A DNA stretch of 64,000 bases from Isoetes taiwanensis (lineage: Eukaryota; Streptophyta; Lycopodiopsida; Isoetales; Isoetaceae): assembly GCA_021234155.1 (NCBI GenBank), contig JAJEKV010000019.1:19839359-19903358 (forward strand), given 5' to 3'. Below are positions 29,835 through 59,453 of the stretch, one piece after another. The position numbers and the translations under genes are program-made. The stretch's first letter is position 1. Every line of letters starts with the position of its first letter. The notes beneath the pieces were generated by a model. It was not told where the DNA came from. It ran no database searches and was given only the letters and a program-made list of their open reading frames with translations.

Positions 29835-31085
29835 ACATCACCATATCATTTACATAAATTACGTATATTTTGCAATATATGCATAGAAAATAGTTTTTGC
29901 ACATGTGGATTTGAATTTGCTATGTCACCACTCATTTTGCCATATCATCATCCATTTAGTGGCTCATCATAAAAATGCTTCTTTGTTATATTTCTGCATT
30001 TGCCATATATTAGTTCTTATTATGCTATGCACCCACTTTTGGCGCATAAACATATTTTAGTTTACTCCACTTGTCAAATTAACGCATCTACATGGCATGT
30101 CATCACGATGTAAGTACACCAAATTTTGGCACCTTTCTCCTTTTTCCCAAAGTTCTTACTAGTGCTAAAACCTCCCATGTATTATTTTTAACACCCCAAA
30201 TTTTGTTAAAAGACCTTGTGATTGGAATTCTTTTCCCAACTTACACCAACTGCAGCCAACTTGGGAGTGGACAAATATATATGACATTTGCGATTTGTCA
30301 TATAGTGTCACAAATGATGAACAAGAAACAAAAATGTGTATGCCATGTGATGGTTCCAACCATCTCCTTTGTGGTGGCAAGTCATATTCTCCTTTTTAGA
30401 GCTTTGCAAATATCAGGTACGTCGCCATCAACCCATGTAAGGTTTAAGAATTTATCTATCACGTATGTTACCGGTATTAAACAAAAGGGAGAAGGAATTT
30501 GGCAACTTCGAGAAAGCAATATGGCAAAAGCCATACCTATAGCAGAAGAAATACAAATGGCCAGTTGTTAGAATGAACATATATAAATGTAAAAGCCATA
30601 TGAAACTGTAATTTGTGTGGTCCAGAAGCCATAACTGCAGTAGACATACTGCAGAAGTCATACTGCAGAACAAATATGCGAAATACAAATGGGTAAGACG
30701 TCAATATAACAGTTGTTAGAATGCCAGTATGTAAAAGCCAGAGGGAGAATTCAGACCTGCAATTTTCCACTCAAATTCACCACATTTTGCGATGTGATTT
30801 AACGACGAAACCATCAAAGACATAGCATCTTTTTGTCTGGTATATGTAAGATAGTTTTCAGTTTTATATCTTTTTTGGACATACTGGATATGTTATATGT
30901 TATATGATGTACTTGGCTGTCATATAGACCTAAGGGTCTCTACATGACATTTTAATACATTACTATTATTATTATTATAGTCTTCTGCGGCAAATCGACA
31001 GGTTCAATAAGTTAGACGTATCCAACAAGAGCCTGTGTTTGTGCAGGCACTGAATTGCATCCCAAATATAAAGTAGCAAGTATCA
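29835..31085 (+). repeat. Tandem duplication upstream of the BAHD gene, copy 2
   Basis: Same landmarks as copy 1. It ends about 380 bp before the BAHD start codon and carries an extra segment at 30862-30980 that copy 1 lacks. Confidence 0.8.
30862..30980 (+). mobile_element. ~120-bp insertion with (ATT)n tail
   Basis: The segment is absent from the aligned place in copy 1. It ends in five ATT units, like the 3' end of a truncated non-LTR element. AGTTTTC before it and AGTCTTC after it could be a decayed target duplication. Its 5' part is not recognisable. Confidence 0.45.
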
Positions 31086-39600: not shown

Positions 39601-40228
39601 GGTGCATGGTACTCCAAAGGCCCAAGACCCTTACGGGGGCACATCTACGGAGCAATGGGAGCAATACACGAACGGCTTTATCATCCCCCGTGAACACCGG
39701 ACGATGTGCCCCCGCAACATGGCTCAATCACCGGTGATCACGTGCATCGAAGATGTCGAAGAGGGTCGCAGCGCTGGCTAATGGGAAGGCGGCCAGACTT
39801 AGACACGACTAAGCCGGAGTTGCTCAAGTGGGCGTGACAGCCCATGGTGCCCGGCCCTGTCGCGACTTTGTTCAACGTGGCCGCAAAGAGGGTTTTCCCC
39901 GGTCATGGACCCCAGGCGGTTGTTCCCATCTACAAGGCGGGGACCCCCACAGGCCCGGTGATTCTCAAACCATCATGGTCAGCTCAGTGTTTGCCAAGCT
40001 ATTGGCGGGCATTCTCGAACAGCAGGTAACCACCTGGGCAAAGGCAAAATCAGGGCACTTACCCAGGCAGGCTTCCGACCCCGACATTCGACCATTGATC
40101 ACATCTTCACACTCAGGGCCCTGGTCGAGGACAGCAGGAACCGTCAGGAGGACCTGTACTGCTGTTTTGTGGATTTTGCAAAAGCTTTCGACACGGTACC
40201 CCGGGAAACGTTGTGGGCGCGATTGCTG
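36690..40228 (+). mobile_element. LINE with APE endonuclease and start of reverse transcriptase
   Basis: A GC-rich block in AT-rich surroundings. The endonuclease domain is visible as DLIFLMEHGN (near 38435), LLGDFNAQT (near 38805) and SDHLPLL (near 39155), with shifts between frames. The RT follows near 39975-40220 with IMVSSVFAKLLAGILEQQ and DLYCCFVDFAKAFDTVPRET, and stops at 40228 where other elements begin. Sequence around 37430-37560 can be read as a charged, coil-like ORF1 remnant. It resembles the LINE at 10304-12184 in the RT part and supplies the endonuclease missing there. Several frameshifts mean it is inactive. Minus-strand ORFs over it are composition artefacts. Confidence 0.75.
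40221..40228. repeat. Target-site duplication GATTGCTG, left
   Basis: The same 8 bp recur at 40897-40904 on the other side of the MITE. Confidence 0.85.
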
Positions 40229-40896: not shown

Positions 40897-40904
40897 GATT
40901 GCTG
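40897..40904. repeat. Target-site duplication GATTGCTG, right
   Basis: Matches 40221-40228 exactly. Its last two bases are the TG that opens the LTR. Confidence 0.85.
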
Positions 40905-42433
40905 TGACGGCCCCAGCTCATATACGATGCCCTGATCGTGTACAAACTGGAGATCATCCCTCAAACCAGCATCTGCTCGCTGACGTGAGGCCGTCCACCT
41001 AACATCGGGCTCTTGATGGTGGCCAAGAACCCGACGGGAAAGAATGGACGTGTCATTCATCCCGTCTCCCTCGGGATCGATCTAACTGCGGAAGCGTAAA
41101 CACACATGAGCACATAACATAAATCAATAATAACATACCCACCTCGAAGGGTGGTCCACCATATCACAATGGTGATCAACACATCAAGACATCAAAGATA
41201 ACATAGGGAAGTCCTACCTGTGCTCGGACTCATGGGGAAAGACCCGATGGCTTGGGCTCCCGGATAGCAATGCGCATGTAATTCATGGCAAATGGATTTG
41301 GTCGGCATAGGAACATGGCCGTTGGGTAGTCCACTCCATCCGCCCCTCCTGTGCATACTTTGCGGATAGGTGAAAAGTATTGGAGCCCCACCGTGACGTC
41401 CGGTGAATAGCCGAGGGGCTACTACTACCGGGTTGCATCTCCCCAGCCCGATGAGGCAGAGGAGATCACTCTCCTCCGTAAGGTTCATGCCAATCACAGG
41501 CGAGCTAGAGAGCCACCGTCAGATATCGACTTGAACCCCTAGAAGATGACGATCACCCAAGAGGTGTCGAGCCCATACCCCGCCTCATGCGGTGCCGGGA
41601 TATTAGGCCTAGCTCACAACGTTCTCCTACCGCCGCTACGCACTGCAGGGATCAATCGTGATTAGAAAAGCCCTCCCTTGTCACCCGGTCTAGCTCCGCC
41701 ACCCACGTACCAAAGGGCTCTTATGCACAGCCGCATTAATGGGAATTAATGGGCTAAAACTAGGATCATCCATCTACTTGGGCTCGGGTCTCTACCCCCT
41801 TCCCAATACACAAGAGTGGCGATAGAATGTCAAACATCAACACAAATAACTGAAATAATAGAATACATCTATTCTAATCTACCTAATCATACATGGTTAG
41901 GTTCCTTTGTTAGTGTTTATCATTCTTAGGGTCAGAGGGGTCGCCTATAGCTAAGAATGGATACTAATCCTATGGAATGAGGGCTGAAAACTCGGATCTA
42001 ACTATCGGATCAACCACTAACCCGCTTCTTGGCTGGCTCCCACTCCTCTAAAAGCGTCCATGCTGCTGGATTTCGAGACTGCTAGTCTTGGATCGAGCTG
42101 CAACCTAGGAATTCCGATTCCTCTGCTACTCTTCAGGCGAAATGACGTCCAATGCTGCTCCAATCCAACCTATAGGGGCTGGAAACCGAAAGCGTTTCCC
42201 TTTTAGGGTTTATGCCCCTTTATCCCCACGAATTTTAGGGCTGGGCCCTTTTGGTCAATGGGCTATTGCCACATGGCAAAAGATATTATATTCACATGTG
42301 GCCTTAACATGTGCAATATAATGGTTCACTACCCTTTACGGTCGCCGTGTACATGTCATCTGAGTCGACATGTACTAGTGACGTGTCAGTATAATATACG
42401 TATTCATACCGTATGTTATGCTGGAACGTCACA
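40903..42433 (-). repeat. Left LTR (3' LTR of the element)
   Basis: 1,531 bp bounded by TGTGACG and CGTCACA, a canonical TG...CA pair with a 7-bp inverted terminus. The first about 1.5 kb of the right copy at 54700 is homologous. It joins LINE/MITE sequence on the left. Confidence 0.85.
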
Positions 42434-42446
42434 TTCTCCCCACCTT
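42434..42446 (-). promoter_or_regulatory. Polypurine tract
   Basis: Minus strand AAGGTGGGGAGAA sits directly next to the LTR start TGTGACG, the place and composition expected of the plus-strand DNA synthesis primer. Confidence 0.75.
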
Positions 42447-45400
42447 AAAATGATGCTGTCCGCAGCATCAAGGTTCTCCCCACCTTGGGATCTTCCTGTC
42501 CTGCAACCGACTTGATGCATGCAATTATTATTATAGTTATATAATTATTAGAATTACTCTAAGGTAATGTTTAAGACCTTACTGTACTATTTGATTATCC
42601 AATTAACTTATCGCTTCATAACTTAATACAACATTTAAGTTTATCAAAGTTTATCAAGTTCATACAAAATTTACACTTCCAAGGTACTCTTCATCCCTTG
42701 CAACACGTTATAACAAAATTTGTGTTGCAAGTCTTTGCACCTTGAAATCCTGCATTAATTTTACAATATCTATAATTACATACTTACTATCTCACACAAA
42801 ATTTAAGCGATTAGTTTAAATGGTAGAAATCGCAACTACTCTAGAACTCTTTAACTTGTCAGAGGATATCTTCGCATTTCCTCCACCAACTGCTTGCATG
42901 TGGGCTAGCATCTGTTAACATTTTTAAGTAAACATGATGCTTGGACGCCAAGACGATCCTGGCCGGACTTCCCTTAATGCATGCGATTAACATAATTACT
43001 CTAAGGTAATATTTATGAATTAACATTATCATAGTATGGGATACATTACTTTCGATCGGATACATTACTTTCGATCGCATAAATTATATTTACTCTAGCT
43101 TTGCAATATTTAACAACTTTTAGGTCGCGATTATTTAAACAATAACCCTGATTTGGAGCTATTGTTACATAGACAAGGTTTTAATTATCATACACAAGAA
43201 TTAGATGTGCTTCTTATTCTCTTCCTTGGGTCCTGCATTACCCTTGGAAGTATATCCCTAAGATGCACTTAAGTATATCTGAATTCTATTTTCTATTTAT
43301 ATTTATAAGGACCCGAGGTTATATAGCTATCCTTGGAAGGAATTGCATCCTTCTTGAAGGATTAATTAACATGCTACCTCACATTACCGTTGTTATTTAA
43401 CTTATTTCCCTATGATACATATATGTACAACAAATTCTATGTGGTTATTAGGATCTATATTTAACTTGTCAATAAGACACATTAAAGCTTATTATGCATG
43501 GGCACCCTTACCTAAGGCTAGGACGCATCCACCCATTGAGCCGGCGTGGAGTAATTTGGAGGTGACTTGGTCGTTGCATTGCTCCCATAGTTTTGCTCCA
43601 CTTCATTGGTGTAGTTAGCTACTACGCCGGTCTCAAGCGTTGAAGGCCTCCCCGAGCACTAAGGTATCTATCTATCTTACGCTTATATTCGCTTCGCCCC
43701 ATTGCCGGGAGTGAACTCTATTCTACGGGTCGGTCAATTCGATGCAAGTATGCGCTCAATCATAAGATTGAGCCCTCCCACTTTCTTCAAAACGAAAATG
43801 GTCCTCAAGACCTTCAACGGCGTTGTACACAACGCGTCATATCTATTCTCTCCCCTTAAGAGGTTATACGCTTCTTACTTAGCGCATTAATTTACTAGCC
43901 TTAGCTGACATATATAACTATCTAAGATGGATGCACATATTATGTTATCATTTATTTCAATATAGTTATGGGTTACCTACTTAGTTAGAACAATTCTAAA
44001 CCACAAGGTTTTGTCATGACGACAATTCCTTTTATCTCAAAAGACTATTTGATTACTATAATTCTTATTTTAGATGTACCTTACATGTATTATTCTTTTA
44101 TATTCTAGAGATTCCCCCTTTCTTAGTTATTTAAACTCTTGGAATATTCCTACCAATCGAATTGATGCCATCGTAACAAGTTGGCCGGACTTGTTAGATT
44201 GCTTCTTTTCTTTCGGTTGGATTATTCTTTTGGAGGTGCTAGATTTATACATGGTCAACAATTATCCTAGTAATGATTCCTTCTTAGCGAGGTGATCAAT
44301 CTCACCAAGTGGTTTCAATATGTTGGACGTCTGTTAACAATCGTGTATAATTATAGTTACTCCTATGCATTTCCTTCCCAATCCTTGATGCTTAGCTCAA
44401 TATTGGGGCAATCCTTTCAGCGAGAATATCTGAAAATGCCTTCTAATCCCAATATGGATGTTACCGTCTATACATTTACCCTACTAGGCCCCATGGCCTT
44501 AGATCCTTGAGCTTGTTAGAAGCTTATCCACTCGTTGCCTGCTTGAAGTAGCAAGGTGACGTTCTTCCGAAATCGCCGATACTTGGTCTCCTTGACGGTG
44601 GCTCCTCTTTATGTAGAGGTTGACTTTGTTCGTTAGAAGCCTCTCATTGCTGGTGGCTTTGATGGTGTAGTTGATCACTTGAATCTTCCATGCCGCTTTT
44701 CAAAAGCCTGAAGGTGATGCCGTTGAAAAAAAATCTTTCATCTTGAACTCTTTGTCTTGGCGGCTAAAAGGACGACTCGATCCGATATTGTTTCTTCGAC
44801 TCCATCGACGTCTCATACGTCGAGTCCTCTTGTTGCCCGAAGAGTGTTGAGGATGTTGGTTGCTTCACCCCTGCAATTGCCTGACATCTCTTCCTTTGAT
44901 TTGTTACGCTATGGGAGGGAGGGAATAACAAGGGAACTATATATGCAAAGCATATAGCTTACATAATTACAATTACTACTAGAGCTATTAAGTCCCCCTT
45001 ATGCTTCCCTTCGAGTTGCACACCTACTCCTTGGTAATGTCATCGGTGTTCCTCCCGGTGCAATGGTGTTGACGATCTATATCCTCCTATTTGTACGTCC
45101 GCTCGTACTCCGGAGTGACTTGTTGATATACTTGGGCCGTCCGATGTTTGTTGGCTATTGCACAACACGCTTTGCATCACATTCTAACTAAAGGTGTGCT
45201 GGTCGTTGATGCTTCGACATTTCAGTCTGCTTCCTGATCCTGTTCTCGGGCGGTAATTGTTCCCCCCTTCATGATACTTGAAGCTATTTGGAGGCGTCTC
45301 TTGAGGCTGTGTGCGCTTTCTTTGGCTATACTCCTCTGGAGTTGTTCTCTTCTGCAGTTGTTCTTTGAATCGTCCATCCTTGGGTTCACCAAGTTGCATG

Positions 45401-46560
45401 CAAGTCCGCGTGCAAGTTATCGGCTCGCCTCGTCTCGCCTCACCTAATTGCTCCTCCATCGGCTTCCAATCTTCCTTGTTTGATCCCCTCGGTCACATGG
45501 CTTGGACATTGTCACGTTCCTCAGTGCTATGCCGTCTTCTTGTCTTGAGGTACCCTCCGGTGGTTTTGATTGTGCCCGTCAGTTTTGATCCTCCTGTTGC
45601 CTCTAGGGAGCTCGTTGATGCCGGGTCGTTCCTCCTTCGTACTTGCTCTTCCATTTTGATCTTGGGCTATAGTTGTGCTTCCTTGCTTCCTCATTTGGTA
45701 GTCGAAGTGAAGGAGCTTCCTGATCTAAGCGCTAAATCCGTAAAACATGACTTTAAACTCATGTTTCTCCACTATATCTGTGAGCACCCGATCATATACA
45801 ATAGACATATATGCATTTACATTGGGATTTTAATTCATCCACTTTTTCAAAACAACTACGAAGATCTACTTAAATGTTTATACTCCTTTAGGGTTTCCCC
45901 TCCTCCTATCGCGTTTGATCCTTCGGTTTTGCTGCATCTTCTTCGTTCTGGTTGACTCCGGGATTCCTTGAGATGTTGCTACTATTGTTGAGCTTCATGT
46001 CTGATCCGAGCTCGTCACCCCAAGTTGCGAAGAGTGTTCGTCGATGTGGTCCCTTGAAAAAGATGCTCCTTCTTAATGTGCATGTCTGTCGTAAGGAATG
46101 CGGTGACCGCTCAACGTCCCTATATGCAGTGTGTCGTTGCAAGGTTGCCGATGTGCGGTGCCATTGATCGGTTGATCACCTAGCTGTTGCAGTCGGGCGT
46201 TCTTGAATGTCTTCGAAGCTCTGAGATCGTGGTCGGTAGGCAGGCATTGTTATTCTTCCGCAGGTTGAACTTCTGGGTGCGACTTCTGTTGCTTGGGCTT
46301 TGCTTCATTCCGAGGTCTCTCTTGTCCGTGGAAGTGTGGTCATCTCCATTGCACCTACCATAGCTCCTTCTCTTTGCGTGATTTGTTCCTGCTGTCTAGG
46401 TCGTCTCCTCCGTTCTTTGTGACCTATCCATTCGAGTCTCGCACTCCTTATCTGCCTGTAGATCGGCCGGGTCCTCGATGTCTTCAAGAAGTTGCGCCTC
46501 TAGCTCTTCTTTGGCTCTGGCCTTATACTTCGAAAGCAACGCTCGTATATCCTAGAGTCT
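42447..46560 (-). other. Non-coding 3' internal region of the retrotransposon
   Basis: The part up to 45806 is homologous to 56178-59453. ORFs on either strand (for example 45311-45955 plus) are not conserved in the second copy and show no known domain. Minus-strand translation near 45906-46487 is rich in charged residues and may be a degraded gag, but nothing specific can be named. Confidence 0.5.
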
Positions 46561-47243
46561 AAGGGTCTACTTGAAGGGTTCCCCTACAACATTCTGGGCT
46601 CTATAAGTAAGCAAGATGGCTCGAGCAGCATTACTGGAGACATCTATAATCTACAAGTCTATGGACATTAGGACGTGTGGTATGGCATGAAATGAGGTTT
46701 GTTTTGCAGAGCCTTCATGATGTTTGAGGCATACTCTAAGGTCCTAGCAAAGTTGGTTTGGGAGAGTCCAATCTCTACACGTGGAGTGACTTGGGCAGCT
46801 CTAGACTCTGGCTCCTTTCTAGGTGTCCTGGCAATAGGGAGTGTCAATGTGGCAGCTGTATAGGTCAAACTCTATTAGAAGGACACAAAATTAGGTCAGG
46901 GTTTATGCCTTTGGCATGAGCAGAGGTGATGTACCAACAGTTGGACTTGGGTTGCTATGCTGAGGTCTAGATGACTATAATAAAGGGGTGTTCTTGGGCA
47001 CTTCTATCTAGGAGTAAGGCATCAGCTTTGAGCCGAGAGCAATACTTGTGAGGTACTAATGGGATATGCTTCTATTTACAAACAAACCACAGTTTGGAAA
47101 AACAATTCAAGGGTTTGAGCAATTTTAGTCATTTTGAGCTGGGGTCATAAATGGATTCTAGGCTGTCTAACGGTCCTATTGGAACAAATTTCAGGCGATT
47201 TGGAGCTGTGTAGCTCAAGTTATGGGGTTTGAAAAATCGGACC

Positions 47244-47309
47244 CCTCTAAGAGTGCGCGAGGAGGGTGTTAGGTTGGGACCTAAGTGGCCTCTGGCGCAC
47301 TCTTGGAGG
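47244..47309 (-). repeat. 66-nt hairpin, copy 1
   Basis: Opens CCTCTAAGAGTGCGC and closes GCGCACTCTTGGAGG, with an inner GTTAGGT/ACCTAAG pairing. The closing arm here pairs better with the opening arm than in other copies. Confidence 0.8.
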
Positions 47310-47447
47310 TGTTGGTCTATCTGGATGCCAAGAACAAGTTCAAAGACGTGAATTCCTACTTATTTTCCTCTTAACTGCAAGTTTCTTTGCTTATTTACTT
47401 CATTTGGAGCAGGTAAGTGGCTGATCAAGGGCCCAGTTGGCTGGACC

Positions 47448-47513
47448 CCTCTAAGAGTGCGCGAGGGGGGGGTTAGGTTCAGACCTAACTGTGCTCTGGC
47501 GCACCCTTAGAGG
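47448..47513 (-). repeat. 66-nt hairpin, copy 2
   Basis: Opens CCTCTAAGAGTGCGC, inner GTTAGGT/ACCTAAC, closes GCGCACCCTTAGAGG. It starts 204 bp after copy 1, and both are followed by TGTTGGTC. Confidence 0.8.
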
Positions 47514-47654
47514 TGTTGGTCAAAATTGGACATTTGCTCCTTAACTACTACTATACTTAATTCAATGCACGTTTTAAACAACTATATATCCTTATTATTC
47601 AAAAATTTCACACTTTCCATATAAGCCTGTTAGTTAGGAAAAGTAGTTTCTGTT

Positions 47655-48287
47655 CTATTTATCTGTCCTCTTGATGTATTTGGCCAGTCTCATGTCCTTT
47701 GGCTGAAGCGTGACTCTTTTTGCATGGACCGTGCATGCCAGTGAATCTTCGAAGTGTTGCACGGCCTCCATCTCTGCTGCTTCTTGTAAAGCGAGTAACA
47801 TGTCGTTGGTTACTCGCTTGTCGGGGTCGAAATCCCACAAAATCTCCCGGACAAATCTCTGGAATGCAGCTCTGAGGATAAGAAATCCGTAACTCCGTTG
47901 GAAGTGTCGGATTTCTCGCAAGGCTTTCCCAAATACTGAATTTTAAGATCTTCTCTTGGGCTTCTGTGGGGGGTCCGGAAGCTCTGGTGGGGGTTTCAGC
48001 CGGAGTGTCTCACGTGTTGGCCGCCCTCCTTCAATATATTTTACCTTGTATGCCTCGTAATAGGCACTGTACTCGGTGTGCATCCTCTTTGCCTTCTCTT
48101 CTTTCCTCTTGGTCCTCTCTTCTTTCTTCCGCCTCTTCTCTAGATTTCGGTAGTATCTAGGTCGCCTCTCCATGTCGGCCTTCAGTTTCTCTTCAGCATC
48201 CTTGAGTTTCTGCTCGGCGGCGAGGACTTGGGCGCTGGGCTTATCATCGTTGCTTACCTTACGAGCGGTCTGCTCCGTCCTAGCCAT
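47655..48287 (-). CDS. Divergent histone H3-like ORF with long charged insert and one in-frame stop
   Basis: The ATG at 48287 opens MARTEQTARKVS, matching the H3 tail ARTKQTARKS except Lys4 to Glu. About 95 charged residues follow, probably coiled coil (AAEQKLKDAEEKLKADMERR, then a Lys/Arg/Glu-rich run), ending PPPELPDPPQKPKRRS. A TAA at 47943-47945 (codon 115) interrupts. The same frame continues FGKALREIRHFQRS, AFQRFVREI, LLALQEAAE and HAKRVTLQPKDMRLAKYIK to TAG at 47655. These match the H3 alpha-N, alpha-1, alpha-2 and alpha-3 regions. Loop 1 has canonical H3 length; REIRHFQ resembles CENH3. An H3 would pair with H4 in nucleosomes. A TATA box and telo-box lie upstream, and retroelement hairpin arrays lie on both sides. 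The stop means pseudogene, readthrough or sequence error. Confidence 0.8.
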
Positions 48288-48393: not shown

Positions 48394-48421
48394 TAATTTA
48401 TAGGGTTAAATTTTAGGGTTT
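48394..48421 (-). promoter_or_regulatory. TATA box and telo-box upstream of the H3-like ORF
   Basis: On the minus strand AAACCCTAAA (48421-48412) precedes TATAAATTA (48402-48394), about 110 bp before the ATG at 48287. Telo-boxes are common in plant promoters of histone, ribosomal and other growth-linked genes. A second AAACCCTAA lies on the plus strand at 48362-48370. Confidence 0.55.
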
Positions 48422-48497: not shown

Positions 48498-48526
48498 CTA
48501 GTAATGGTGCCCAGCGTTGCTGGGCA
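48498..48526 (-). mobile_element. Helitron-like 3' terminus
   Basis: Minus strand: hairpin with 8-bp stem (48508-48526, core GCCCAGC/GCTGGGC), seven spacer bases, then CTAG followed by T. It has the same layout as 33639-33668 with different stem bases, so the structure is kept while the sequence changes. Confidence 0.6.
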
Positions 48527-48639
48527 TAAGTTGGGAATCTGTATAGACGGAAACCTGTTCATCTCAGACTCCTTTTCATAAATCTAATATAATAAAAACG
48601 AAATCCAGTATTCTTGGGCTATAATAGGTTGTTGTGTAC

Positions 48640-49010
48640 TTGACACCCTTTTTCATTTCTCTTTCTATTTTTTATTTTTCCATACCTTTTTCCATTCCTT
48701 TTTCCTCACCTTTTTTACATGCTCCTCATCCCTTTCATCTTCAAAGTTTTTCCGTGCCCTTCCCCTCTTCTTCTTTTCTAATTTCCTATCCCGTTTCCTC
48801 GTGCACCTTTTCCCTTCCCTTTTCCCCTCTCTGCCTCCTTTTTCGTTTTTCCTTTCCCTTTTTATTTTCCCATGTTCTTTTTTTTGTCTCTCCACCATTT
48901 TTCGCTTCCCTTTTCCTCCTTTCCTCACCCTTTCCTCTTTCCCTTTTTCTGTTGCCCTTTTTCCCTTCCTTTTCCTCCCTCCCCCTTTTCTTTTACCTTA
49001 TTTTTCCTTA
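48640..49010 (+). repeat. ~370-bp polypyrimidine tract
   Basis: The plus strand is almost entirely T and C, built from variants of TTTTCCCTTCC. ORFs here are low-complexity. From 49011 to 49747 there is no recognisable gene, only a T-rich run near 49205-49250. Confidence 0.85.
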
Positions 49011-49747
49011 AGGTAGCCTAATAATATCCAAAATGTTTTAAATCACTATTGTTCTAATATTTAATATCTAAGCTCAATAGTAAACATGTGCCTGGAGTAT
49101 CCATGCATTAGTAGGTATGTTTATATGGAGTTGATACCCTATAGCGTACAAATTTTTTGACTAATTAGTTTTGGCCATGTCTCTCCACGGAACCTCTCTT
49201 GTGTGTGTGTGTTCTTTTCTTTTTCTTTTTTTGTTTTCTTTTTTTTTTTTTAAGAGAAGGAGGAGGAGATTTTAAACATATCCTGGCAACACATAACATA
49301 TGTAGGGGTACGTGTATGTACGGATATGGTGTCTATATGGATAGGAGTGTGTTCGTTCCCAATAGAAGTGGCAATTCCATCAAATGCATAATCAACAAAC
49401 ATATATGTGATATTGGACAGAATGGCCATCATGGTGTAAACAAAGATCCACTCTATAAGGCTCTTTAAAAATTAGAGAATGGAATGATAAACATATGCAA
49501 ATGATTAGATTAGTATCTTTTCGGGGCAAAGTGAATTATGTCGTTTGAATGCAAAGTGTATGAAATTATAAGATTACACATTAGTGGTACTTAGTTGAAA
49601 ATATCCATCATGGTAGATAGATTTGTGAACGCCATTTTAGCTTTTAAGAAAAATGCTATTTTATCTACAGACAGAATGCCCTTTGTTATCTATCGAATGT
49701 TTAACTTCTGCTCTTTTGATGTTCTATTCTATTAACTAGCCCATTGT

Positions 49748-49815
49748 ATGGGTCCCATGACCTATTGGTCTTCGTGGACGTTAAAAAAACTATTCTATTC
49801 TATTCTATTCTATTA
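49748..49815 (+). mobile_element. Very short LINE 3' end with (ATTCT)n tail
   Basis: ATGGGTCCCATGACC, then GGTCTTCGTGGACG and a pentanucleotide run, match the last about 70 bp of the LINE ending at 12184. Everything 5' of that is missing. Confidence 0.75.
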
Positions 49816-50264
49816 AGGACAATGGTCGTTAAAGGTGCATTTAAGCTTGTATATTTTATAGATTTATACTACTTGGGACTTCAAATGGTTTCAAAATAAA
49901 CTTGTTTGTACTTTTTAACGGGAATGCCAACAAATAATCTTTGAGATGTCAAATGACTTTGATGTCATCACAATTGTCGGGATTGTAATGAACATCATGA
50001 ACATTACATTGGTAACTACATTTATGCCAATTTATATAATTATATAATACTCAAAATGCAAGGAATGATCACTGCATTTATCAATGTCGATAGCCATCAT
50101 CCATCATATCTTGAATGAGCATCTAGAAAAGCAAGCTTGCCGAATGAATAAAAGAGGTAAATTATCTAAAAACAAAAAAAATGGAGGATTATGCTCAATA
50201 ACGTAATAGAAATACTTGTATTTTGATTGCAAGGAGATCACATGGAATTTGAGATATTCTCATG

Positions 50265-51090
50265 AGTGTGTATCTCATGGTGTAGAGAGAAAGGTCTACC
50301 TATAATACCACCTACAACCTGTACAATGAAACTATGCAATCAAATTTAATATACAATTGCATGAGGCTTTCGATGCCACCTACAACCTGTACAATGAAAC
50401 TATGCAGTCAAATTGATTATACAATTACATGAGACTTTCGATGCATGAATATGCTATAAGGACAGAGGACACAATCTCTAATAGACTTGCCATGTTATTA
50501 TTTAATGTGGATGGCTATGATCAAGATTGGCCAGTGGTTGGCTATGTCTATGGCTATGTGCAAAGCAAGAAAAAAATGTTGGAAATAAGAATTAGAAAAT
50601 AGAAGGCGGCCTGAACACCACAACTAGATTTTTGAGCTCATCCCATGAAACTAAAAGACTGCTCATGTCTTGGCATTTCTATAAAAAAGAGATTAGAAGT
50701 GGAGTCTGAGATCTGTAGTTTTTCTTATCATCATATTCTATTCTATTCTCATGAGTGTGTGTCTCGCAGTGTAGAGAGAAATGTCTATAATACCACCTAC
50801 GACCTGTACAATTAAACCATGCAGTCAATTCTAGTATACAATTGCCTAAGGCTTTGGATGCATGAATATGCTCTAAGGACAGAAGACGCAATCTCTAAAG
50901 AACTTGCCAGATTGTTATTATTTAATGTGGGATGTCTAAGCAAGAGTACAATGCTGGAAAAAAGAATTACAAAATAGAAGGCAGCCTGAACAACGCAGCT
51001 AGATTTTTGGGCTAATCCCATGAAACTAAAAGACTGTTCATGTCTTGGGATTTTTATAAAAAAGGGATTAAAAGTGGACCTTGAGACTGT
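50265..51090 (+). repeat. Tandem duplication of a ~350-440 bp unit
   Basis: Copies at about 50265-50712 and 50745-51090 share CACCTACAACCTGTACAAT, GATGCATGAATATGCT, AAATAGAAGGCGGCCTGAAC and GAAACTAAAAGACTG. A short ATTCT run (about 50732-50750) sits at the junction. From 51091 to 52390 I see no gene; the ORF at 51020-51235 has no known motif. Confidence 0.7.
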
Positions 51091-52392
51091 TCCATTGACA
51101 AAAGAAGAATCCCTATTTGTATTTGAGGAGCAGAGGAAACAAAGCAAAGATCTATTGGCATCACAACGAAGAAAATATTATTTTGTGACAATAACAATCA
51201 TAGGAGATAGGCACCCCATCCTCCATCTAGTTTGAATGAGTGCAATGAGTGACCAATAGCACAGACTTTGGTGCCAAGAGCAGAATCGAGAAGAGGAAAC
51301 AGTGGGTGTTTTCAGCCACAATAATTGCATAACAATGGTCAAATATTGTGATAAACTTACTCAGATGTCTGAGTGCCAAATGGTAAGGCTGAACTACTGC
51401 AAATGTTCAAGTTGTTTCAAAGTAGGAGTAGTACTTGCTCAGTAGCTGGGTGGCACTGCCTCCAAATGCTCAAATGCTGGAGCAAATGATACACCAAAGC
51501 TGGAGACAAAACAAAATAAAATTAGCCTTCTATACAACTTTATATCAAAAAGCTTACAAAGGATACCTTGAATAAGAAAAAAAAAAAACTGGAAATTTTA
51601 TACCATAGCCAAACTTCATGGACGGCTAGCTCCAAAGTGAGAAGCCTGCAAATAAAGAGCCTCGCCCTGATCAGAAGACCTTCAATAAGCCCATGTGGGC
51701 AACAGATGTTTGGCCTGATGCATCGACTCTAGAGCTCAGATTTGGGTTACAGGCCACATGTAACAAATAACCAAGCTAGAGATGCAGATCAAGACATATG
51801 ACATTTGCCTTATAGGATTCCATGACCTGCAGCAGGTTGTGTATAATGGGTATGGTGAGGCTATAATATTGTCACAACAATTATTATTACTATAATTATT
51901 ACTATGAAGATGACCTTGCACTTTTCAAGCATGTTTAGGAAGTGTAAATAATTGCCTTCTTATGTAGCATGTTCCAGGTTCTAATGGAGGACCAAAGCTT
52001 CCTCATCAAGATAACTATTTTTTGTGTAACAAACGCTAGTCTAGAAATAGACTTTCCAAGAAATTATACCTATCCAATCAGAACATTCAACCTGCAATGA
52101 GGTATCTAACCAGGCTACATGCACTTGTAAAACGGGGAACTCAGCTGTGATAATATGAAAAGTACGATGGTTGTTTTAATTTTAAGGGAAAGAACATCAC
52201 ATTTGGGGCAATCATAAATAGAGAAGAGTTACTCTTACCTCAGATGGCGAGTAATTTCTTGGAAGCGAAGCCCATTGTGCCAATTGCCTGTGCATCCAAT
52301 GAACCAATTGTTGAACCTAAATGGTTGGCACAGAGAATAGAGCCCATCTGCAACAACGAAGGGGACTTTCCTTTGCGGGATTATCTTGAATT

Positions 52393-52536
52393 AGAGCACA
52401 TTCTGATCAGAACGTCTGAAACACAGACCGCATCATTGATTATGAAGGAGCATAATATGTTGAAATAGAGTATGTTCTGATCAGAATGTCGGAAACACAG
52501 AATGCTTCATTGATTCTAAAGGAGCGTAATATGAAG
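52393..52536 (+). repeat. Tandem duplication of ~70 bp
   Basis: GTTCTGATCAGAATGTC-like sequence, AAACACAGA, TTGATT and AAGGAGC occur twice in the same order. Confidence 0.7.
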
Positions 52537-53120
52537 AAGAATACCTCAGCGCATGCAAAGGCCTCTTCCCAGCAAAAGCTTAGATAACCTGCCAAGAGCT
52601 CTGCTAGGTTTGTTCTGCCATTCTCGGCATTCACCATATGCGCGCATCCGTAGACCTTCACTTGATTTTTTAGAAATGTTAGAAGCAATGCTGGCTTCAT
52701 GTTTTGTAATGTGTGCACTGTGCATTTGGTACATCTCAAATTTATCTTTGACTTTCCATAATCCATATCTTGCATCTGCCAGCTTATCTTACTATGTAGT
52801 CCCATAAAGAAAAATAATACCCATATCCTAGTTTCAAGTTCCACCCATCATCCAAGATAATCCAGCACGTTGGTTTTTTCCAAGGTCCATTCCACACATA
52901 CCTCTCACTCATACTATAACTGTATATTCTCAAGCAGCGGCTGGAAACCAGAAAGATGAACTAAACAAATGCCTCCCAACACAAGCTGGCAAACCATAGA
53001 CATTATTTAGAAAAATCCATATTTCTCTGCCATGTCATTGCATTCTGATGATTATTTTTTCAGAAAATTTTCCAATTCAATCCTAACTTATCATCTGTTT
53101 TGTACATTGCAGCAGTTTGA

Positions 53121-53733
53121 TTACCAATAGTCTCCAATTAGCTTGCCTGTCGCCGGAGGCATCCATCTGCCAGAATTGTACACATTTTCTCCAACCTTCC
53201 AGCCTGGGGCATGAGCCATGATCCTCGCTTCTTCTTCAAGTTGTTTTTGGTATTCCTTAACGAACCTAAGATAGATAACTAACAATCAGAATCACCTTGC
53301 CACTAAACGTGATAAAAAGTTAGTACTACCTCAAATCTTCCTCAGCTTGAAGAAAAGGCATTATAGCTTGTCGACCGGCAATCTTCTCAGCTTTCACAGC
53401 CCTGTAATTTAATTTATTCATATAAAATTTAGGAGTCTGCATATACCCGCAAAAAGCAACCACAGAATTTACCGATGATCATGTTGATTTTGCTTTGTAT
53501 TGCGATTATTGTTTCATTTACAACTATGGAGGATTCAGCATAGAGACAGAGAAACACACCTGCGATACTTGTTGCCCTGTCCAACCTGATAAAGCCCATA
53601 TGAAATAATGAGGGCAGCTCCAGTGAAGATGGCAACTGCACTGGGTCCAGTGTTAGAGGGGCATGTCTTGAAGGGGGGGCATGTCCTTGACACTGGCCAT
53701 GCCCTTCTGGCCTCGGATTAGAGTTTCCGTCAT
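53121..53733 (-). pseudogene. NDUFA13: NDUFA13 / GRIM-19, complex I subunit copy with damaged exon 1
   Basis: Predicted exons are 53733-53560, 53401-53330 and 53265-53121, with GT-AG introns. Exon 1 encodes [20 protein letters not shown] and, in another frame, [10 protein letters not shown] and [14 protein letters not shown] with the single membrane segment. Exons 2 and 3 are intact: AVKAEKIAGRQAIMPFLQAE, then [15 protein letters not shown] and TAA. NDUFA13 is an accessory subunit of mitochondrial complex I, about 143 residues in plants. Here roughly 14-15 residues (the usual Gly/Pro-rich GPPPGG...YARR stretch) are missing and the junction shifts the frame by one. The protein would otherwise be about 129 residues. 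Introns exclude a retrocopy. The gene lies within a putative Helitron inside a retrotransposon. Confidence 0.85.
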
Positions 53734-53868
53734 AGCTACAGCTGCTTGGAGCTTCCGGTGTTCGGATCGTTCGTCTTCCCTATATTGTTCGAAAGATTGG
53801 CAAATCGTAATCATAGGATAAAGTGATTAAACCTCAGCCATTGGATCTAGGGCGTGGTCCATTACTTG

Positions 53869-53956
53869 CACTAAAACATTATAATATAAGATTTTTCCTC
53901 AAACCCTTCTAAGCACTAAAACATTATAATATAAGATTTTTCCTCAAACCCTTCTA
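53869..53956. repeat. 44-bp tandem duplication
   Basis: GCACTAAAACATTATAATAT plus the 24 bases after it are repeated once, at 53869 and 53913. The unit spans the proposed Helitron/retrotransposon junction. Confidence 0.85.
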
Positions 53957-54016
53957 AGCATGCGCGAGGAGCGTGTTAGGTCCAGACCTAACTATGCCCT
54001 GTTGCATCCTTAAAGG
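53951..54016 (-). repeat. 66-nt hairpin, copy 3
   Basis: The most diverged copy: opens CTTCTAAGCATGCGC, keeps the inner GTTAGGTCCAGACCTAAC and ends TTAAAGG. Confidence 0.65.
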
Positions 54017-54164
54017 TGTTGACCTCTTTTTGCTTTAAACTTATCCAATTTAAACAAATTAACATGCATTTCTAACTAATTTAAGCATTATAAGCAAGAT
54101 TCTATCATTACTTTTAGAATTTAAGTAAATTTGGATCAAATTTCGAGGTCACTTTTAGGGGACC

Positions 54165-54230
54165 CCTCTAAGTGTGCGCGAGGAGGGTGTTAGGTCATGA
54201 CCTAACTATGCCCTGGCGCACCCTTAGAGG
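54165..54230 (-). repeat. 66-nt hairpin, copy 4
   Basis: Opens CCTCTAAGTGTGCGC, inner GTTAGGTCATGACCTAAC, closes GCGCACCCTTAGAGG. It starts 214 bp after copy 3. Confidence 0.8.
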
Positions 54231-54378
54231 TGTTGCTCCAAAAATGACTTTTACTTAATGTTTTTCTGTGTTTTAACATACAAATCTAGCTAATTCGAGC
54301 TTTTTAAGCGGGATTTCATCTTATATTTTACAATTTGGGGCTCCTAAGGCCGAGTTCTAGGGTTCATATGGGGTGACC

Positions 54379-54444
54379 CCTCTAAGAGTGCGCGAGAGAC
54401 CCATTAGGTATGGACCTAACATGCTCCTGGCGCACCCTTGGAGG
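54379..54444 (-). repeat. 66-nt hairpin, copy 5
   Basis: Opens CCTCTAAGAGTGCGC, inner TTAGGTATGGACCTAA, closes GCGCACCCTTGGAGG. It starts 214 bp after copy 4. Confidence 0.8.
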
Positions 54445-54686
54445 TGTCGGCCGAAAGTGCCTGAAATTTATTAGGCTCTCTTAGGTGCTTTTCTTCTATT
54501 TGTTCATCTTACTTATGTTCTCTAATTATCCTAATTCTAGATGATTACTAACTCTACCCCGGGAAGAAAAAATTTCCCACTACTCGAGGTTCGTGCTTGG
54601 GCTTTTATCTCCAAGACTGAATGTCTAGATTAGTTAGTTCCTATAGGATTACGGTCAGTGCTCAATCCTGGTCTGCCAAGATCGGA

Positions 54687-54698
54687 GCTCTGATACCA
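54687..54698 (-). promoter_or_regulatory. Primer binding site for initiator tRNA-Met
   Basis: Minus strand TGGTATCAGAGC complements the 3' end of plant initiator tRNA-Met and lies one base downstream of the LTR end CGTCACA. It fixes the element as minus-strand. Confidence 0.9.
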
Positions 54699-54699
54699 T

Positions 54700-56177
54700 T
54701 GTGACGGCCCCAGCTCATATACGATGCCCTGATCGTATACAAACTGGAGATCATCCCTCAAACCAGCATCTGCTCGCTGACGTGAGGCCGTCCACCTAAC
54801 ATCGGGCTCTTGATGGTGGCCAAGAACCCGACGGGGAAGAATGGACGTGTCATTCATCCCGTCTCCCTCGGGATCGATCTAACTGCGGAAGCGTAAACAC
54901 ACATGAGCACATGACATAAACCAATAATAACATACCCACCTTGAAGGGTGGTCCACCATATCACAGTAGCTGCATCAACACATCAGTACATCAGCATAAC
55001 ATAGGGAAGTCCTACCCAGGCTCAGACTCATGGGGAAAGACTGACGGCTTGGGCTCCCAGATAGCAATGCAGACAGAATTCACGGCAAATGGATTTGGCT
55101 GGCATAGGAACATGGCCGTTGGGTAGTCCACTCCATCCGCCCCTCCTGTGCATACTTTCCAGATAGGCTGAAAAGTATTGGAGCCTGACTGTAGCCTGCC
55201 GGGTGAATAGCCAGAGGGGCTACTACTACTGAGTTGCATCTCCCCAGCCCCGATGAGGCAGGAGGAGATCACTCTCCTCCAGAAGGTTCATGCCAATCAC
55301 AGGCGAGCTAGAGAGCCACTGCTCGTATACGACTTGAACCCCTAGAAGATGACGCATCACCCAAGAGGTGTCGAGCCCATACCCTGCCCTCACGCAGTGC
55401 CAGGATATTAGGCCTAGCTCACAACGTTCCCCGGCCGTCGCTACGCACCAGAGGGATCAACTGTGATTAGACAAGCCCTCCCTTGTCAGCCGGTCTAGCT
55501 CCGCCACCCACAGCCAGGCGGGCTCTTATGCACAGGCCACATTAATTGGGAATTAATGGGCTAAAACTAGGATCATCCATCTACTTGGGCTCTAGGTCTC
55601 TACCCCCCTTCCCAATACACAAGATGTCAAACATCAACACAGAACTGAAATAATAGAATACATCTATTCTAATCTACCTAATCATACATGGTTAGGTTCC
55701 TTTGTTAGTGTTTATCATTCTTAGGCTGTAGGGGTCGCCTATAGCTAAGAATGGATACTAATCCTATGGAATGAGGGCTGAAAACTCGGATCTAACTATC
55801 GGATCAACCACTAACCCGCTTCTTGGCTGGCTCCCACTCCTCTGAAAGCGTCCATGCTGCTGGATTTCGAGACTGCTGGTCTTGGATCGAGCTGCAACCT
55901 AGGAATTCCGATTCCTCTGCTACTCTTCAGGCGAAATGGCGTCCAATGCTGCTCCAATCCGACCTATAGGGGCTGGAAACCGAAAGGGTTTCCCTTTTAG
56001 GGTTTATGCCCCTTTATCCCCACGAATTTTAGGGCTGGGCCCTTTTGGTCAATGGGCTATTGCCACATGGCAAAAGATATTATATTCACATGTGGCCTTA
56101 ACATGTGCAATATAATGGTTCACAAGGTCGTCGTGTACATGTCATCTGAGTCGACATGTACTAGTGACATGTCAGTA
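54700..56177 (-). repeat. Right LTR, truncated at its U3 start
   Basis: Homologous to 40903-42433, starting at the same TGTGACGGCCCCAG. About 85-90 bp that would contain the LTR start and polypurine tract are deleted at about 56177, so this copy could not template a complete new element. Confidence 0.8.
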
Positions 56178-59100
56178 GGTTCTCCCCACCTTGGGATCTT
56201 CCTGTCCTGCAACCGACTTGATGCATGCAATTATTATTATAGTTATATAATTATTAGAATTACTCTAAGGTAATGTTTAAGACCTTACTGTACTATTTGA
56301 TTATCCAATTAACTTATCGCTTCATAACTTAATACAACATTTAAGTTTATCAAAGTTTATCAAGTTCATACAAAATTTACACTTCCAAGGTACTCTTCGT
56401 CCCTTGCAACACGTTATAACAAAATTTGTGTTGCAAGTCTTTGCACCTTGAAATCCTGCATTAATTTTACAATATCTATAATTACATACTTACTATCTCA
56501 CACAAAATTTAAGCGATTAGTTTAAATGGTAGAAATCGCAACTACTCTAGAACTCTTGCTGCGAGAGGATATCTTCGTACTTCCTCCACCAACTGTTGCA
56601 TGTGGGCTAGCATCTGTTAACATTTTTAAGTAAACATGACAGTCTTGGACGCCTGCACGATCCTGCTGGACTTCCCTTAATGCATGCGATTAACATAATT
56701 ACTCTAAGGTAATATTTATGAATTAACATTATCATAGTATCGGATACATTACTTTCGATCGGATACATTACTTTCGATCGTACAATTATATTTACTCTAG
56801 CTTTGCAATATTTAACAACTTTTAGGTCGCGATTATTTAAACAATAACCCTGATTTAGAGCTATTGTTACATAGACAAGGTTTTAATTATCATACACAAG
56901 AATTAGATGTGCTTCTTATTCTCTTCCTTGGGTCCTGCATTACCCTTGGAAGTATATCCCTAAGATGCACTTAAGTATATCTGAATTCTATTTTCTATTT
57001 ATATTTATATGACCCCAGGTTATATAGCTATCCTTGAAGGAATTGCATCCCGCGTAAGGGATTAATTAACATACTCCTCACATTACCGCTGTCCTATTTC
57101 CTATGATACATATATGTACAACAAATTTAAGTGTGGTTATTAGGATTCATATTTAACTGGTCAATAAGACACATTAAAGCTTATTATGCATGGGCACCCT
57201 TACTTCCATACAGACGATCCACCCATTGAGCCGGGCGTGGAGTAATTTGGAGGTGACTTGGTCACAGACGTTCTATAGTTTTGCTCCACTTCATTGGTGT
57301 AGCAGCTACCATGCCGGGCCTCGCACGCTGAAGGCCTCCCTGAGCACTAGCGGTCTATCTATCTACGCTTCTATTCGCTTCGCCATTGCCGAGTGAACTC
57401 TATTCTACTAGTCGTCAATCTTGATGCAAGTATCGCTCAATCATAAGATTGAGCTCCTCCCCACTTCAAAAAGAAAATGGTCCTCAAGACTCTTCAATCC
57501 ACGCTGTACACAACGCCATATCTATTCTTCCCCTTAAGAGGTTATACTTCTTACTTAGCATTAATCACTAGCCTTAGACGTACATATATAACTATCTAAG
57601 ATAATGCACATATTATGCTATCATTTATTTCCAATATAGTTATGGGTTACCTACTTAGTTAGAACAATTCTAAACCACAAGGTTTTGTCATGACGACACC
57701 TTTGTCTCCAAAAGACTATTTGATTACTATAATTCCATTTTAGGATGTACCTTTATATGTATTATCTTTTATATTCTAGAGATTCCCTTTCTTAAGCTAT
57801 TTAAACTCTTGAATATTCCTACTAATCAATTGATGCCATCGCAATGTTGGCCTGACTTTGTTAGATTGCTTCTTTCTTTCTGCTGATTACTTTGGTGCTA
57901 GATTTATACATGGTCAACAATTATCCTTAGTAATGTGATTCCTTCTTAGCTTAGGTGATCAATCCCCACCAAGTGGTTTCAATATGTTGGACGCCTCATA
58001 ACAATCGTGGTATAATTATAGTTACTCATATGCATTTCTTCTCTAACTCGACGCTTTAGCTCAATATCGGGGCAATCCTTTCAAATGAGAATATCCGAAA
58101 TGCCTTCTTAACCTGTAATATATGGATGTTACCGTCTACATTTCATCTCTACTAGGCCCCATGGCCGATCCTTGAGCTTGTTAGAAGCTTATCCACTCAA
58201 GGTTCGCTTGAAGTAGCAAGGTGACGCTCTTCGAAGTCACATACTTCAAATTTTGATCAAGTGGCTCCTCTTTATGTAGAGAAGGACTTTGTTCGCTAGA
58301 AGCCTCCTCATTGCCGTGGCTTTGATGGTGTAGTTGATCACTCTTTGAATCCTCCATTTTCAAAAGCCCTCAAGGTGGCTTGAAAAAAAAATCTTTCATC
58401 TTGAACTCTTTGTCTTGGCAAACAAAGGACGCATCAGATCCTGATATTGTTTCTTTCGACTCATCGACGCCTCATTAATGTCGAGTCCTCTCATGTCTCA
58501 AGAGTGTTGAGGATGTTGGCTGCTTCACCTCGCGAATTGCCCGACATCTTTTCCTTTGATTTGTTACGTTTATGGAGGGAGGGGAATAACAAGGGAACTA
58601 TATATATGCAAAGCATATAGCTTTATATAATTGGCTAAATTACTACTAGAGCTATTAAGTCCCCCTTATGCTTCCTTCGAAGTTGCACACACCTACCCTT
58701 GGTAAATGTCATCACCTGTTCCTCCCGTGCAATGGTGTTGACGATCTATATCCTCCTATTTGTAATAACCGTGCATTCCTGAAAGTGACTTGTTGATATA
58801 CTTGGGCCGTCCGATGTTTGTTGGCTATTGCACAACACGCTTTGCATCACATTCTAACTAAAGGTGTGCTGGTCGTTGATGCTTCTCACATTCTCAGTCT
58901 CCGCTTCCCCGACATCCCCGTTTCTCAAGCGTAATTGTTCCCCTTCATGATATCACTTGAAGCTATTTGGAGGCGCCTCTTGAGGTCAAAAGCGATTTCT
59001 TTGGCTATACTCCTCCTCGAGTTGTTCTCTCGGCAGCTTGTTCTTTGAATCGCCCATCCTTGGGTTCACTGCCGTGGCGTAGTCCACAAGGTGTTATCGC

Positions 59101-59453
59101 TCGCCACCCACTGTTCTTCCCTCCATCGCTTCCAATCTTCCTTTGTTTGATCCCCCGGTCACATGGTTTTGACATTGTCACGCTCGCCATATGTCAGTCT
59201 TCACTTTGAGGTACCTCCGTGGTTTTGATTAAGTCTTTGATCCTCCCCGTTCTAGGAGCTCGTTGATGCCGGGGTCGCTCTCCTTCAGACTTCTGTTTCC
59301 TTCCATTTTGATCTTAGGCTGCGTTGTGCTTCCTTTGCTTCCTCATTTGGTAGTCGGCGGAAGGAGCTTCCCGATCTAAGCTTAAACTGTAAAACATGAC
59401 TTTAAACTTCATGTTTTCCACTATATCTCGGAGCACCCGATATACAATAGACT
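56178..59453 (-). repeat. Second copy of the retrotransposon 3' internal region
   Basis: Homologous to 42465-45806 throughout, with many substitutions and small indels. Homology stops after ATACAATAGAC in both copies, and unrelated sequence follows. No conserved ORF. Confidence 0.75.

What the first reader, a model, noticed from the sequence alone, without database searches (positions are those of the whole stretch)
47655..48287. Histone H3-like gene inside an LTR retrotransposon
Seen: an H3 tail (MARTEQTARK) and an H3 fold (REIRHFQ, AFQRFVREI, HAKRVTLQPKD) in one minus-strand frame. TATA and telo-box lie upstream, and the ORF is flanked by hairpin arrays, one of which is next to the retroelement primer site. 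Known: plant retroelements can carry captured genes, and some target chromatin through chromodomains. I know of no plant LTR element carrying its own H3. Inference: this could be a captured host H3 or CENH3-like gene, or an accessory protein affecting packaging or integration.
Basis: partly seen in the sequence, partly recalled or inferred. Interest (0 to 1): 0.9.

Follow-up and report, generated by a model that had tools for sequence, protein, structure and literature searches.

The report
Jumping genes carrying their own histone
In what appears to be the genome of the aquatic quillwort Isoetes taiwanensis, families of LTR retrotransposons carry their own gene for a histone H3-like protein, preserved by natural selection in many copies, so these jumping genes may build or disguise themselves with their own piece of chromatin.

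Summary
A minus-strand ORF (48287-47655) encodes an H3 tail mimic, a charged linker and a complete, ungapped H3 fold (Pfam E 3e-20) inside an LTR retrotransposon of the same orientation. The window copy is dead (one TAA, ~550-nt deletion, 5.4-kb nested insertion). Elsewhere in the same 1.66-Gb genome (size and contig number match Isoetes taiwanensis) the gene goes with the element: 21 of 40 scored LTR matches have a same-strand H3 locus within 15 kb (0.015 expected), and one 10.6-kb element with an intact 394-aa ORF has a perfect 5-bp target duplication. dN/dS between six intact copies is 0.22-0.48 (fold 0.07-0.35). A second family, found with canonical H3, encodes ~410-aa fusions of an unknown N-terminal domain with a fold ~85% identical to host H3 (fold dN/dS 0-0.05), upstream of gag-pol in a chromodomain-bearing Ty3/gypsy element (RT 4.4-4.6 kb downstream at 12 loci). 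Best reading: an accessory H3 gene, in the second family captured from canonical H3, kept as a chromatin-acting element protein; the window type is a diverged, non-autonomous relative. It is not CENH3-like. Precedent found: an H3L gene in a fungal hAT DNA transposon. The mechanism is inferred.

The parts
47655..48287 (-). H3-like (family B) ORF of the element, dead copy: one in-frame TAA at 47943-47945 and a ~550-nt internal deletion at about 48083-48089
48258..48287 (-). H3 residues 1-10 mimic MARTEQTARK (MARTKQTARK in some other copies)
47655..47924 (-). complete H3 histone fold, 89 aa plus stop, no gap against host H3
48396..48402 (-). TATA box (TATAAAT) of the ORF; TATAAA found in 28 of 31 other copies that could be read
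48414..48421 (-). telo-box AAACCCTA; found in 28 of 31 other copies that could be read
40903..42433 (-). 3' LTR (TGTGACGTTCC...GGCCGTCACA)
42434..42446 (-). polypurine tract AAGGTGGGGAGAA
54700..56177 (-). 5' LTR, first 42 nt missing relative to the 3' LTR; K2P 0.062 to it
54684..54698 (-). primer-binding site TGGTATCAGAGCTCC (initiator-tRNA-Met type, label recalled)
47239..47520 (-). two ~78-nt hairpin units downstream of the ORF
53946..54451 (-). three ~78-nt hairpin units between PBS and ORF
48498..53935 (.). nested insertion: absent (53936 abuts 48497) in three of four compared copies; the fourth has ~0.56 kb of other DNA there
56178..59452 (-). 3' part of another internal region (matches 42471-45806): remnant of a tandem neighbour copy

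Best explanation
The ORF is an accessory histone H3-like gene that belongs to a lineage of Ty3/gypsy (chromovirus-type) LTR retrotransposons. SHOWN by sequence: the H3 ORF is the first ORF after the PBS, in the element's orientation; many loci keep it open; intact copies show purifying selection; a related element with gag, RT, RNase H, integrase and chromodomain carries an H3-fusion ORF upstream of gag-pol; the window copy itself is dead, and no gag or pol was recognised in it. INFERRED: in the second family (A) the source was a canonical host H3 whose tail was replaced by an element-specific N-terminal domain; family B (the window) keeps an H3 1-10 tail mimic, inserts a ~290-aa charged linker, and has a strongly diverged fold. 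Most likely action: the protein pairs with H4 and enters nucleosomes on element DNA or at target sites. Family A thereby lacks the H3 tail residues that carry silencing marks and displays an element domain that can hold or guide the element's particle or integrase; family B offers an H3K4/K9-like tail that the partner's chromodomain or host readers could bind.
For: H3 fold complete and ungapped. In the seven element folds tabulated (three of A/A2, four of B) R49, R69, R72, R83, C110, H113, A114, R116 and T118 are unchanged. Element linkage: fixed LTR-to-H3 spacing; complete element with 5-bp TSD GTATC at C1035. Selection: family B, 6 intact of 40 copies, 15 pairs, dN/dS 0.22-0.48; family A, 8 intact ORFs, 28 pairs, dS 0.24-1.89, dN/dS 0.08-0.15, fold 0-0.05. 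Open copies: 58 of 101 scored A loci full length without a stop; 30 of 107 B matches (hand count). Autonomous architecture: RT/RNaseH, integrase, chromodomain PF00385 E 5e-9 at one copy; 17 loci with a same-strand RT within 10 kb downstream against 0.05 expected, 12 of them at 4438-4575 bp; gag-like ORF in the interval of one copy.
Against: No expression, protein or chromatin data. 34 of 40 family-B copies examined are broken or partial. 19 of 40 LTR matches have no listed H3 locus nearby, including four LTR pairs; lists are capped, so loss, solo LTRs or deeper divergence cannot be told apart. Contact residues are not kept everywhere in B: R63 is replaced in the four tabulated folds (kept in L010), D123 is H in L045, and of the intact copies L010 has Q at 49 and L014 Q at 72. 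No partner of family B was identified. A and B share only short LTR/PBS/PPT similarity (77-88%) and a marginal N-terminal match (E 0.046).
Confidence: 0.55

Rival explanations
1. Dominant-negative decoy: the TE H3 is maintained because it binds H4 and H3-H4 chaperones or silencing enzymes and so weakens host chromatin assembly or silencing during transposition, rather than by stable incorporation into nucleosomes.
For: Substitutions of A and A2 folds hit the 86-89 stretch (3 of 13 or 3 of 11 changes in A, 3 of 11 in A2), recalled as the chaperone-specificity patch of H3 variants; family B offers an ARTKQTARK-like, substrate-like tail.
Against: Most nucleosomal DNA- and dimer-contact residues are kept too, which a pure decoy need not do; no binding data.
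Confidence: 0.22
2. Packaging or integration factor: the histone fold or basic linker binds the element's cDNA or RNA inside particles, as a histone-like nucleocapsid or pre-integration tether.
For: Encoded after the PBS and upstream of a gag-like ORF in family A; linker of B rich in K, E and R with several basic runs.
Against: A fold kept ~85% identical to host H3 with fold dN/dS 0-0.05 implies partners beyond nucleic acid; no particle data.
Confidence: 0.18
3. Passive hitchhiker: a captured H3 fragment that only spread because the element spread, as in most transduplicated genes.
For: 34 of 40 B copies broken or partial; a review calls gene fragments captured by DNA transposons in plants usually non-functional pseudogenes (PMC13317346, passages).
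Against: Fold dN/dS 0-0.05 at dS up to 1.9 and 58 of 101 scored A loci open over the full length; TATA and telo-box each in 28 of 31 readable copies.
Confidence: 0.04
4. Ordinary host H3 or CENH3 gene at this locus into which a retrotransposon inserted.
For: A promoter-like stretch and an H3 tail are present.
Against: Same ORF at fixed distance from the LTR in many loci; the TSD of one element encloses it; 15 full-length host-type H3 loci at 96-98% identity to the query lie elsewhere.
Confidence: 0.01

Closest known systems
H3L of the Pyrenophora tritici-repentis hAT transposon (PMC3538342; passages read)
   Same: a mobile element carries and multiplies an H3-like gene; a likely autonomous and a shortened form
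   Different: fungal DNA transposon with 26 very similar copies; here LTR retrotransposons in a plant, deep divergence between copies, purifying selection, fusion with a domain unknown to Pfam
Plant chromoviruses (Ty3/gypsy with chromodomain)
   Same: RT, RNase H, integrase, chromodomain, LTR ends, PBS, PPT
   Different: extra ORFs (H3 fusion, ORF2, ORF3) between PBS and gag; no such report seen in the nine paper searches listed under Tried and rejected
Captured genes in plant LTR retrotransposons, including large non-autonomous (LARD-type, name recalled) elements
   Same: LTR, PBS, PPT, TSD, no gag or pol recognised in the window type; a review reports that most of 1,235 genes linked to captured LTR sequences in rice are under negative selection (PMC13317346, passages), so selection on such genes is not new in itself
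   Different: the captured gene is an H3-like gene with many intact, deeply diverged copies; the review passages do not mention histones
Canonical H3 / CENH3
   Same: family A fold ~85% identical to host H3; family B begins like H3 residues 1-10
   Different: tail replaced (A) or extended by ~290 aa (B); no CENH3-type loop-1 insertion

Membership tests
LTR retrotransposon | paired LTRs with TG...CA, PBS, PPT | tested here: met
LTR retrotransposon | target-site duplication | tested here: met
   GTATC on both sides of the C1035 copy; none was found at the window copy, a rearranged tandem
Ty3/gypsy chromovirus (window-type element) | own gag-pol with RT, integrase, chromodomain | tested here: not met
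   no gag or pol recognised by eye in the ORF lists of the window internal region and of the B pieces read; these short ORFs were not scanned against Pfam, and the listing shows pol-like ORFs that lie beside L027 without match to the element. Filed only as a non-autonomous relative
Ty3/gypsy chromovirus (family A element) | RT-RNaseH-integrase order and chromodomain | tested here: met
   one copy
Histone H3 | complete histone fold with H3 contact residues | tested here: met
   (some contact residues replaced in single B copies; R63 in four of the B folds)
Histone H3 | modifiable N-terminal tail of canonical length | tested here: not met
   A: tail replaced in the eight ORFs read; B: only residues 1-10 kept
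Histone H3 | assembles into nucleosomes | not testable with these tools
   needs protein work
CENH3 | longer loop 1 and grouping with plant CENH3 | tested here: not met
TE-borne H3 (Pyrenophora H3L type) | H3-like ORF multiplied as part of the element | tested here: met
TE-borne H3 (Pyrenophora H3L type) | hAT DNA transposon with TIRs | tested here: not met
   LTRs and pol instead

The most novel reading that the evidence does not exclude
A chromovirus lineage has made H3 a standing element gene: it reads chromatin with its chromodomain and writes it with its own tail-swapped H3, so that element DNA or target sites carry element-made nucleosomes that escape tail-based silencing; non-autonomous relatives evolved a second, tail-mimicking H3 that may recruit the partner's chromodomain integrase.
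Probability: 0.35. Interest if true: 0.96.

Novelty: new variant of a known kind. Interest (0 to 1): 0.86.

Why it matters
Retrotransposons are usually seen as targets and readers of host chromatin. A lineage that keeps its own H3 under strong selection would be a writer, and gives a natural set of H3 variants with swapped tails for testing what the H3 tail is needed for and how elements evade silencing. It also matters for annotation: in the capped list, 135 non-host H3-like loci stand beside 15 full-length host-type ones, so H3 gene counts and H3 chromatin data in this genome may be confounded.

Tried and rejected
Considered and rejected: (1) intron explanation for the ~550-nt difference: in the intact copies the extra DNA is open coding sequence continuous with both sides, and the window copy breaks at a repeated AAGAGGA, so it is a deletion. 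(2) LTR of ~4.9 kb (from the self-comparison): comparison with other copies showed the LTR is 1.53 kb and 56178-59452 is a piece of a neighbouring internal region. (3) CENH3 origin. (4) tRNA or known RNA family in the window: none at the thresholds used. (5) Solved relatives of an A N-terminal stretch of 111 aa, of the B tail plus linker, or of ORF2: none meaningful. (6) Structure of the window fold: predicted without an alignment, mean pLDDT 59.5, four helices, too weak for a fold search, so none was made. (7) A pooled fold dN/dS of 0.65 over 14 copies was set aside because it included a misaligned row (L026) and copies whose genes are broken elsewhere. (8) Host CENH3 was not sought by its own query because H3-like loci would swamp the capped list. 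(9) The protein database search could not be made (database switched off).

Paper searches: (open-licence PMC only; two returned nothing). No report of an LTR retrotransposon with its own H3 was seen in the listings. Seen as passages: PMC3538342, PMC13317346, PMC8566536 (Isoetes taiwanensis genome; no occurrence of 'histone'), PMC12477816. All other papers: search listing only.

Full report
OBSERVATION. On the minus strand of the window, 48287-47655 reads MARTEQTARK, a lysine/glutamate-rich stretch, and then a complete H3 histone fold, all in one frame with a single TAA between linker and fold. The fold matches Pfam Histone at E 3e-20 and solved H3 chains at about 1e-21 over 85 residues without any gap, so this is not chance. 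TATA and telo-box lie 109-134 nt upstream of the ATG. Of 38 other copies examined, 31 could be read there; each motif is found in 28 of these 31.

THE ELEMENT IN THE WINDOW. It lies on the minus strand. LTR 40903-42433 begins TGTGACGTTCC, ends GGCCGTCACA, and is preceded by AAGGTGGGGAGAA; the other LTR is 54700-56177 (K2P 0.062; it lacks the first 42 nt) followed by TGGTATCAGAGCTCC. The self-match beyond 56177 (to 59452) is part of another internal region, so the locus is a rearranged tandem. In three of four other copies window 53936 abuts 48497; in the fourth (L027) about 0.56 kb of other DNA lies between; 48498-53935 is therefore a later insertion. Five ~78-nt units, three between PBS and ORF and two after the ORF, fold into stable hairpins (z -3.8 to -6.8); their role is unknown.

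HOST. The genome held for the window has 1,658,258,908 bases in 1110 contigs. The published Isoetes taiwanensis assembly has 1658.30 Mb in 204 scaffolds plus 909 unplaced contigs (PMC8566536, passages). The host is therefore very likely I. taiwanensis; the name comes from this match, not from a label.

THE WINDOW TYPE (FAMILY B) IS A MULTI-COPY ELEMENT GENE. A DNA search with the ORF scored 40 loci of 801 candidates. Most copies have about 550 more coding nucleotides than the window, which has lost them at a repeated AAGAGGA. Of 40 copies examined (window, the C549 copy and 38 others) 6 have an intact ORF of 386-394 aa; 34 are broken or partial. With the protein of one intact copy, 105 of 41208 candidates were scored and gave 107 matches, the long ones at 54-100% identity; by hand count 30 cover residues 1 to 393 or 394 without a stop, 20 of these at only 71-75% identity and one at 59%. 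The LTR of the window scored 40 of 7630 candidates. Set against 41 B loci (40 and one), 21 of the 40 LTR matches have a same-strand B locus within 15 kb, against about 0.015 expected. In 14 the LTR lies upstream: 11 at 776-820 bp, one at 1.6 kb, the window at 6.3 kb because of its insertion, one at 10.7 kb. In 7 it lies downstream: 6 at 7.5-8.7 kb, one at 14 kb. Nineteen LTR matches have no listed H3 locus nearby, among them both members of four LTR pairs (C246, C907:44.2 Mb, C1019:21.28 Mb, C1029:7.43 Mb); because both lists are capped, these may be solo LTRs, H3-less copies, a partner element or more diverged copies. One copy (C1035) is complete: GTATC flanks both outer LTR ends, about 10.6 kb apart, and the element holds an intact 394-aa ORF. 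No gag or pol was recognised by eye in the ORF lists of this copy or of the window's internal region; these short ORFs were not scanned against Pfam.

A SECOND FAMILY (FAMILY A). A canonical H3 query against the genome scored 150 of 9022 candidates: 15 full-length host-type H3 loci at 96-98% (two were read, L064 and L065), and 135 others at 71-86%, 49 of them in stop-free open frames of at least 400 codons. Eight of the latter, chosen for long open frames, encode 409-421 aa: an N-terminal domain without Pfam match (MAITKSAPDPTTLSIVEIYAMIAKH...), a basic linker and an H3 fold from KPHR(F/Y) onward, about 85% identical to host H3 in the copy measured. A ninth (L063, called A2 here) has a different N-terminal part and a fold 88% identical to host H3. 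Searching with one A protein scored 101 of 12392 candidates; the 101 match at 77-100%, and 58 of them are full length without a stop.

FAMILY A SITS IN AN AUTONOMOUS-TYPE CHROMOVIRUS. Around one A copy (C1061) lie an LTR, a PBS, and downstream RT-RNase H, integrase with an SH3-like end, and a chromodomain in another frame (PF00385, E 5e-9), then the second LTR, cut by the end of the piece. The RT of that copy scored 84 of 40943 candidates. Among 191 distinct non-host H3-like loci (pooled) and these 84 RT loci, 17 H3 loci have a same-strand RT within 10 kb downstream against 0.05 expected; 12 of the spacings are 4438-4575 bp. Of 21 pairs within 20 kb, 20 are on the same strand. The other loci show no RT in the capped list. 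In one of the 4.5-kb intervals there are a 467-aa ORF and a 161-aa ORF without Pfam match, then a gag-like ORF (Retrotrans_gag E 7e-5, just under its cut-off). The gene order is thus LTR, PBS, H3 fusion, ORF2, ORF3, gag, pol with chromodomain, PPT, LTR, put together from two copies. The LTR start TGTGACGTTCCA, LTR end CGTCACA, PPT and PBS resemble those of the window element (short matches of 77-88%), so A and B elements look like one lineage.

SELECTION. Between the six intact B copies (15 pairs) dS is 0.05-0.33, dN/dS 0.22-0.48, and in the fold 0.07-0.35. Between eight intact A ORFs (28 pairs) dS is 0.24-1.89, dN/dS 0.08-0.15, and in the fold 0-0.05; four A copies (six pairs) have no amino-acid difference in the last 100 codons despite 4-13 synonymous changes. 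Two cautions: copies were chosen as intact, and A loci were found by fold similarity, which lowers fold dN in A. The A N-terminal domain was not part of the H3 query and still gives 0.07-0.18 (27 of 28 pairs computable). A first pooled figure of 0.65 for the fold of 14 B copies, most of them broken elsewhere and one misaligned, was set aside.

RELATION TO H3 AND CENH3. A differs from host H3 at 11-13 of 89 positions in the two rows tabulated, A2 at 11, B at 44-47. R49, R69, R72, R83, C110, H113, A114, R116 and T118 are unchanged in the seven element folds tabulated. Exceptions in B: R63 is replaced in the four tabulated folds but kept in L010; D123 is H in L045; L010 has Q at 49 and L014 has Q at 72. 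Three of the A changes and three of the A2 changes fall in residues 86-89, recalled as the stretch that steers H3 variants to their chaperones. N-terminal parts of A and B match only marginally (DM..RP.RY, E 0.046), so common descent of the two fusions is a hint, not a result.

MECHANISM. Shown: an H3-like gene is a multi-copy, selected part of these elements. Inferred: the kept contacts suggest that the protein can still pair with H4 and enter nucleosomes; loss of the tail in A would remove the usual marked lysines while adding an element domain; B keeps residues 1-10, which the chromodomain of a partner integrase or host readers might bind. Decoy and packaging roles remain open and are rated as rivals.

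COMPARISON AND NOVELTY. The closest precedent found is H3L, a histone H3-like gene multiplied inside a fungal hAT DNA transposon (PMC3538342, passages). A 2026 review of gene capture by plant TEs has no occurrence of 'histone', but does report negative selection on most genes from captured LTR sequences in rice (PMC13317346, passages). None of nine searches of the open-licence library listed a report of an LTR retrotransposon with its own H3; subscription papers and preprints were mostly not covered. I rate it a new variant of a known kind (captured genes in TEs), with unusually strong signs that the captured gene works for the element.

LIMITS. Genome lists are capped, so copy numbers are lower bounds. 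No other eukaryotic genome could be searched.

Noticed in passing
L068:157-1557 (+) and L068:1771-2253 (+): Two further ORFs (467 and 161 aa) without Pfam match lie between the H3 fusion and gag of the chromovirus; the first may be another accessory gene.
   Followed up: partly
window 47239-47520 and 53946-54451: Five ~78-nt stable hairpin units (CACCTCTAAGGGTGCGCC...TTAGGT..ACCTAA...GCGCACTCTTAGAGGGGT) flank the H3 ORF on both sides in the window; similar units flank it in other copies.
   Followed up: partly
L063 (C1014:353300-355100): A third type of H3 fusion (A2), fold 88% identical to host H3, with a different N-terminal part containing DMLAHPDRYHAELRRR.
   Followed up: partly
L002 (C549:77118-80772): A second copy shares the window's internal deletion but has other sequence upstream of codon ~11, so the deleted form has been duplicated or has moved at least once.
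   Followed up: no
window 28597-30859: Tandem-like duplication of units of about 1.2 kb (85-86% identity in the longest pieces), not part of the H3 element; not identified.
   Followed up: no
window 10323-10583 and 39969-40225: Two dispersed copies (72% identity) of an unidentified repeat; a related stretch also matched near the C1035 element (L031).
   Followed up: no
window 16533-20240: Cluster of direct repeats of several units (about 74-95% identity), not identified.
   Followed up: no
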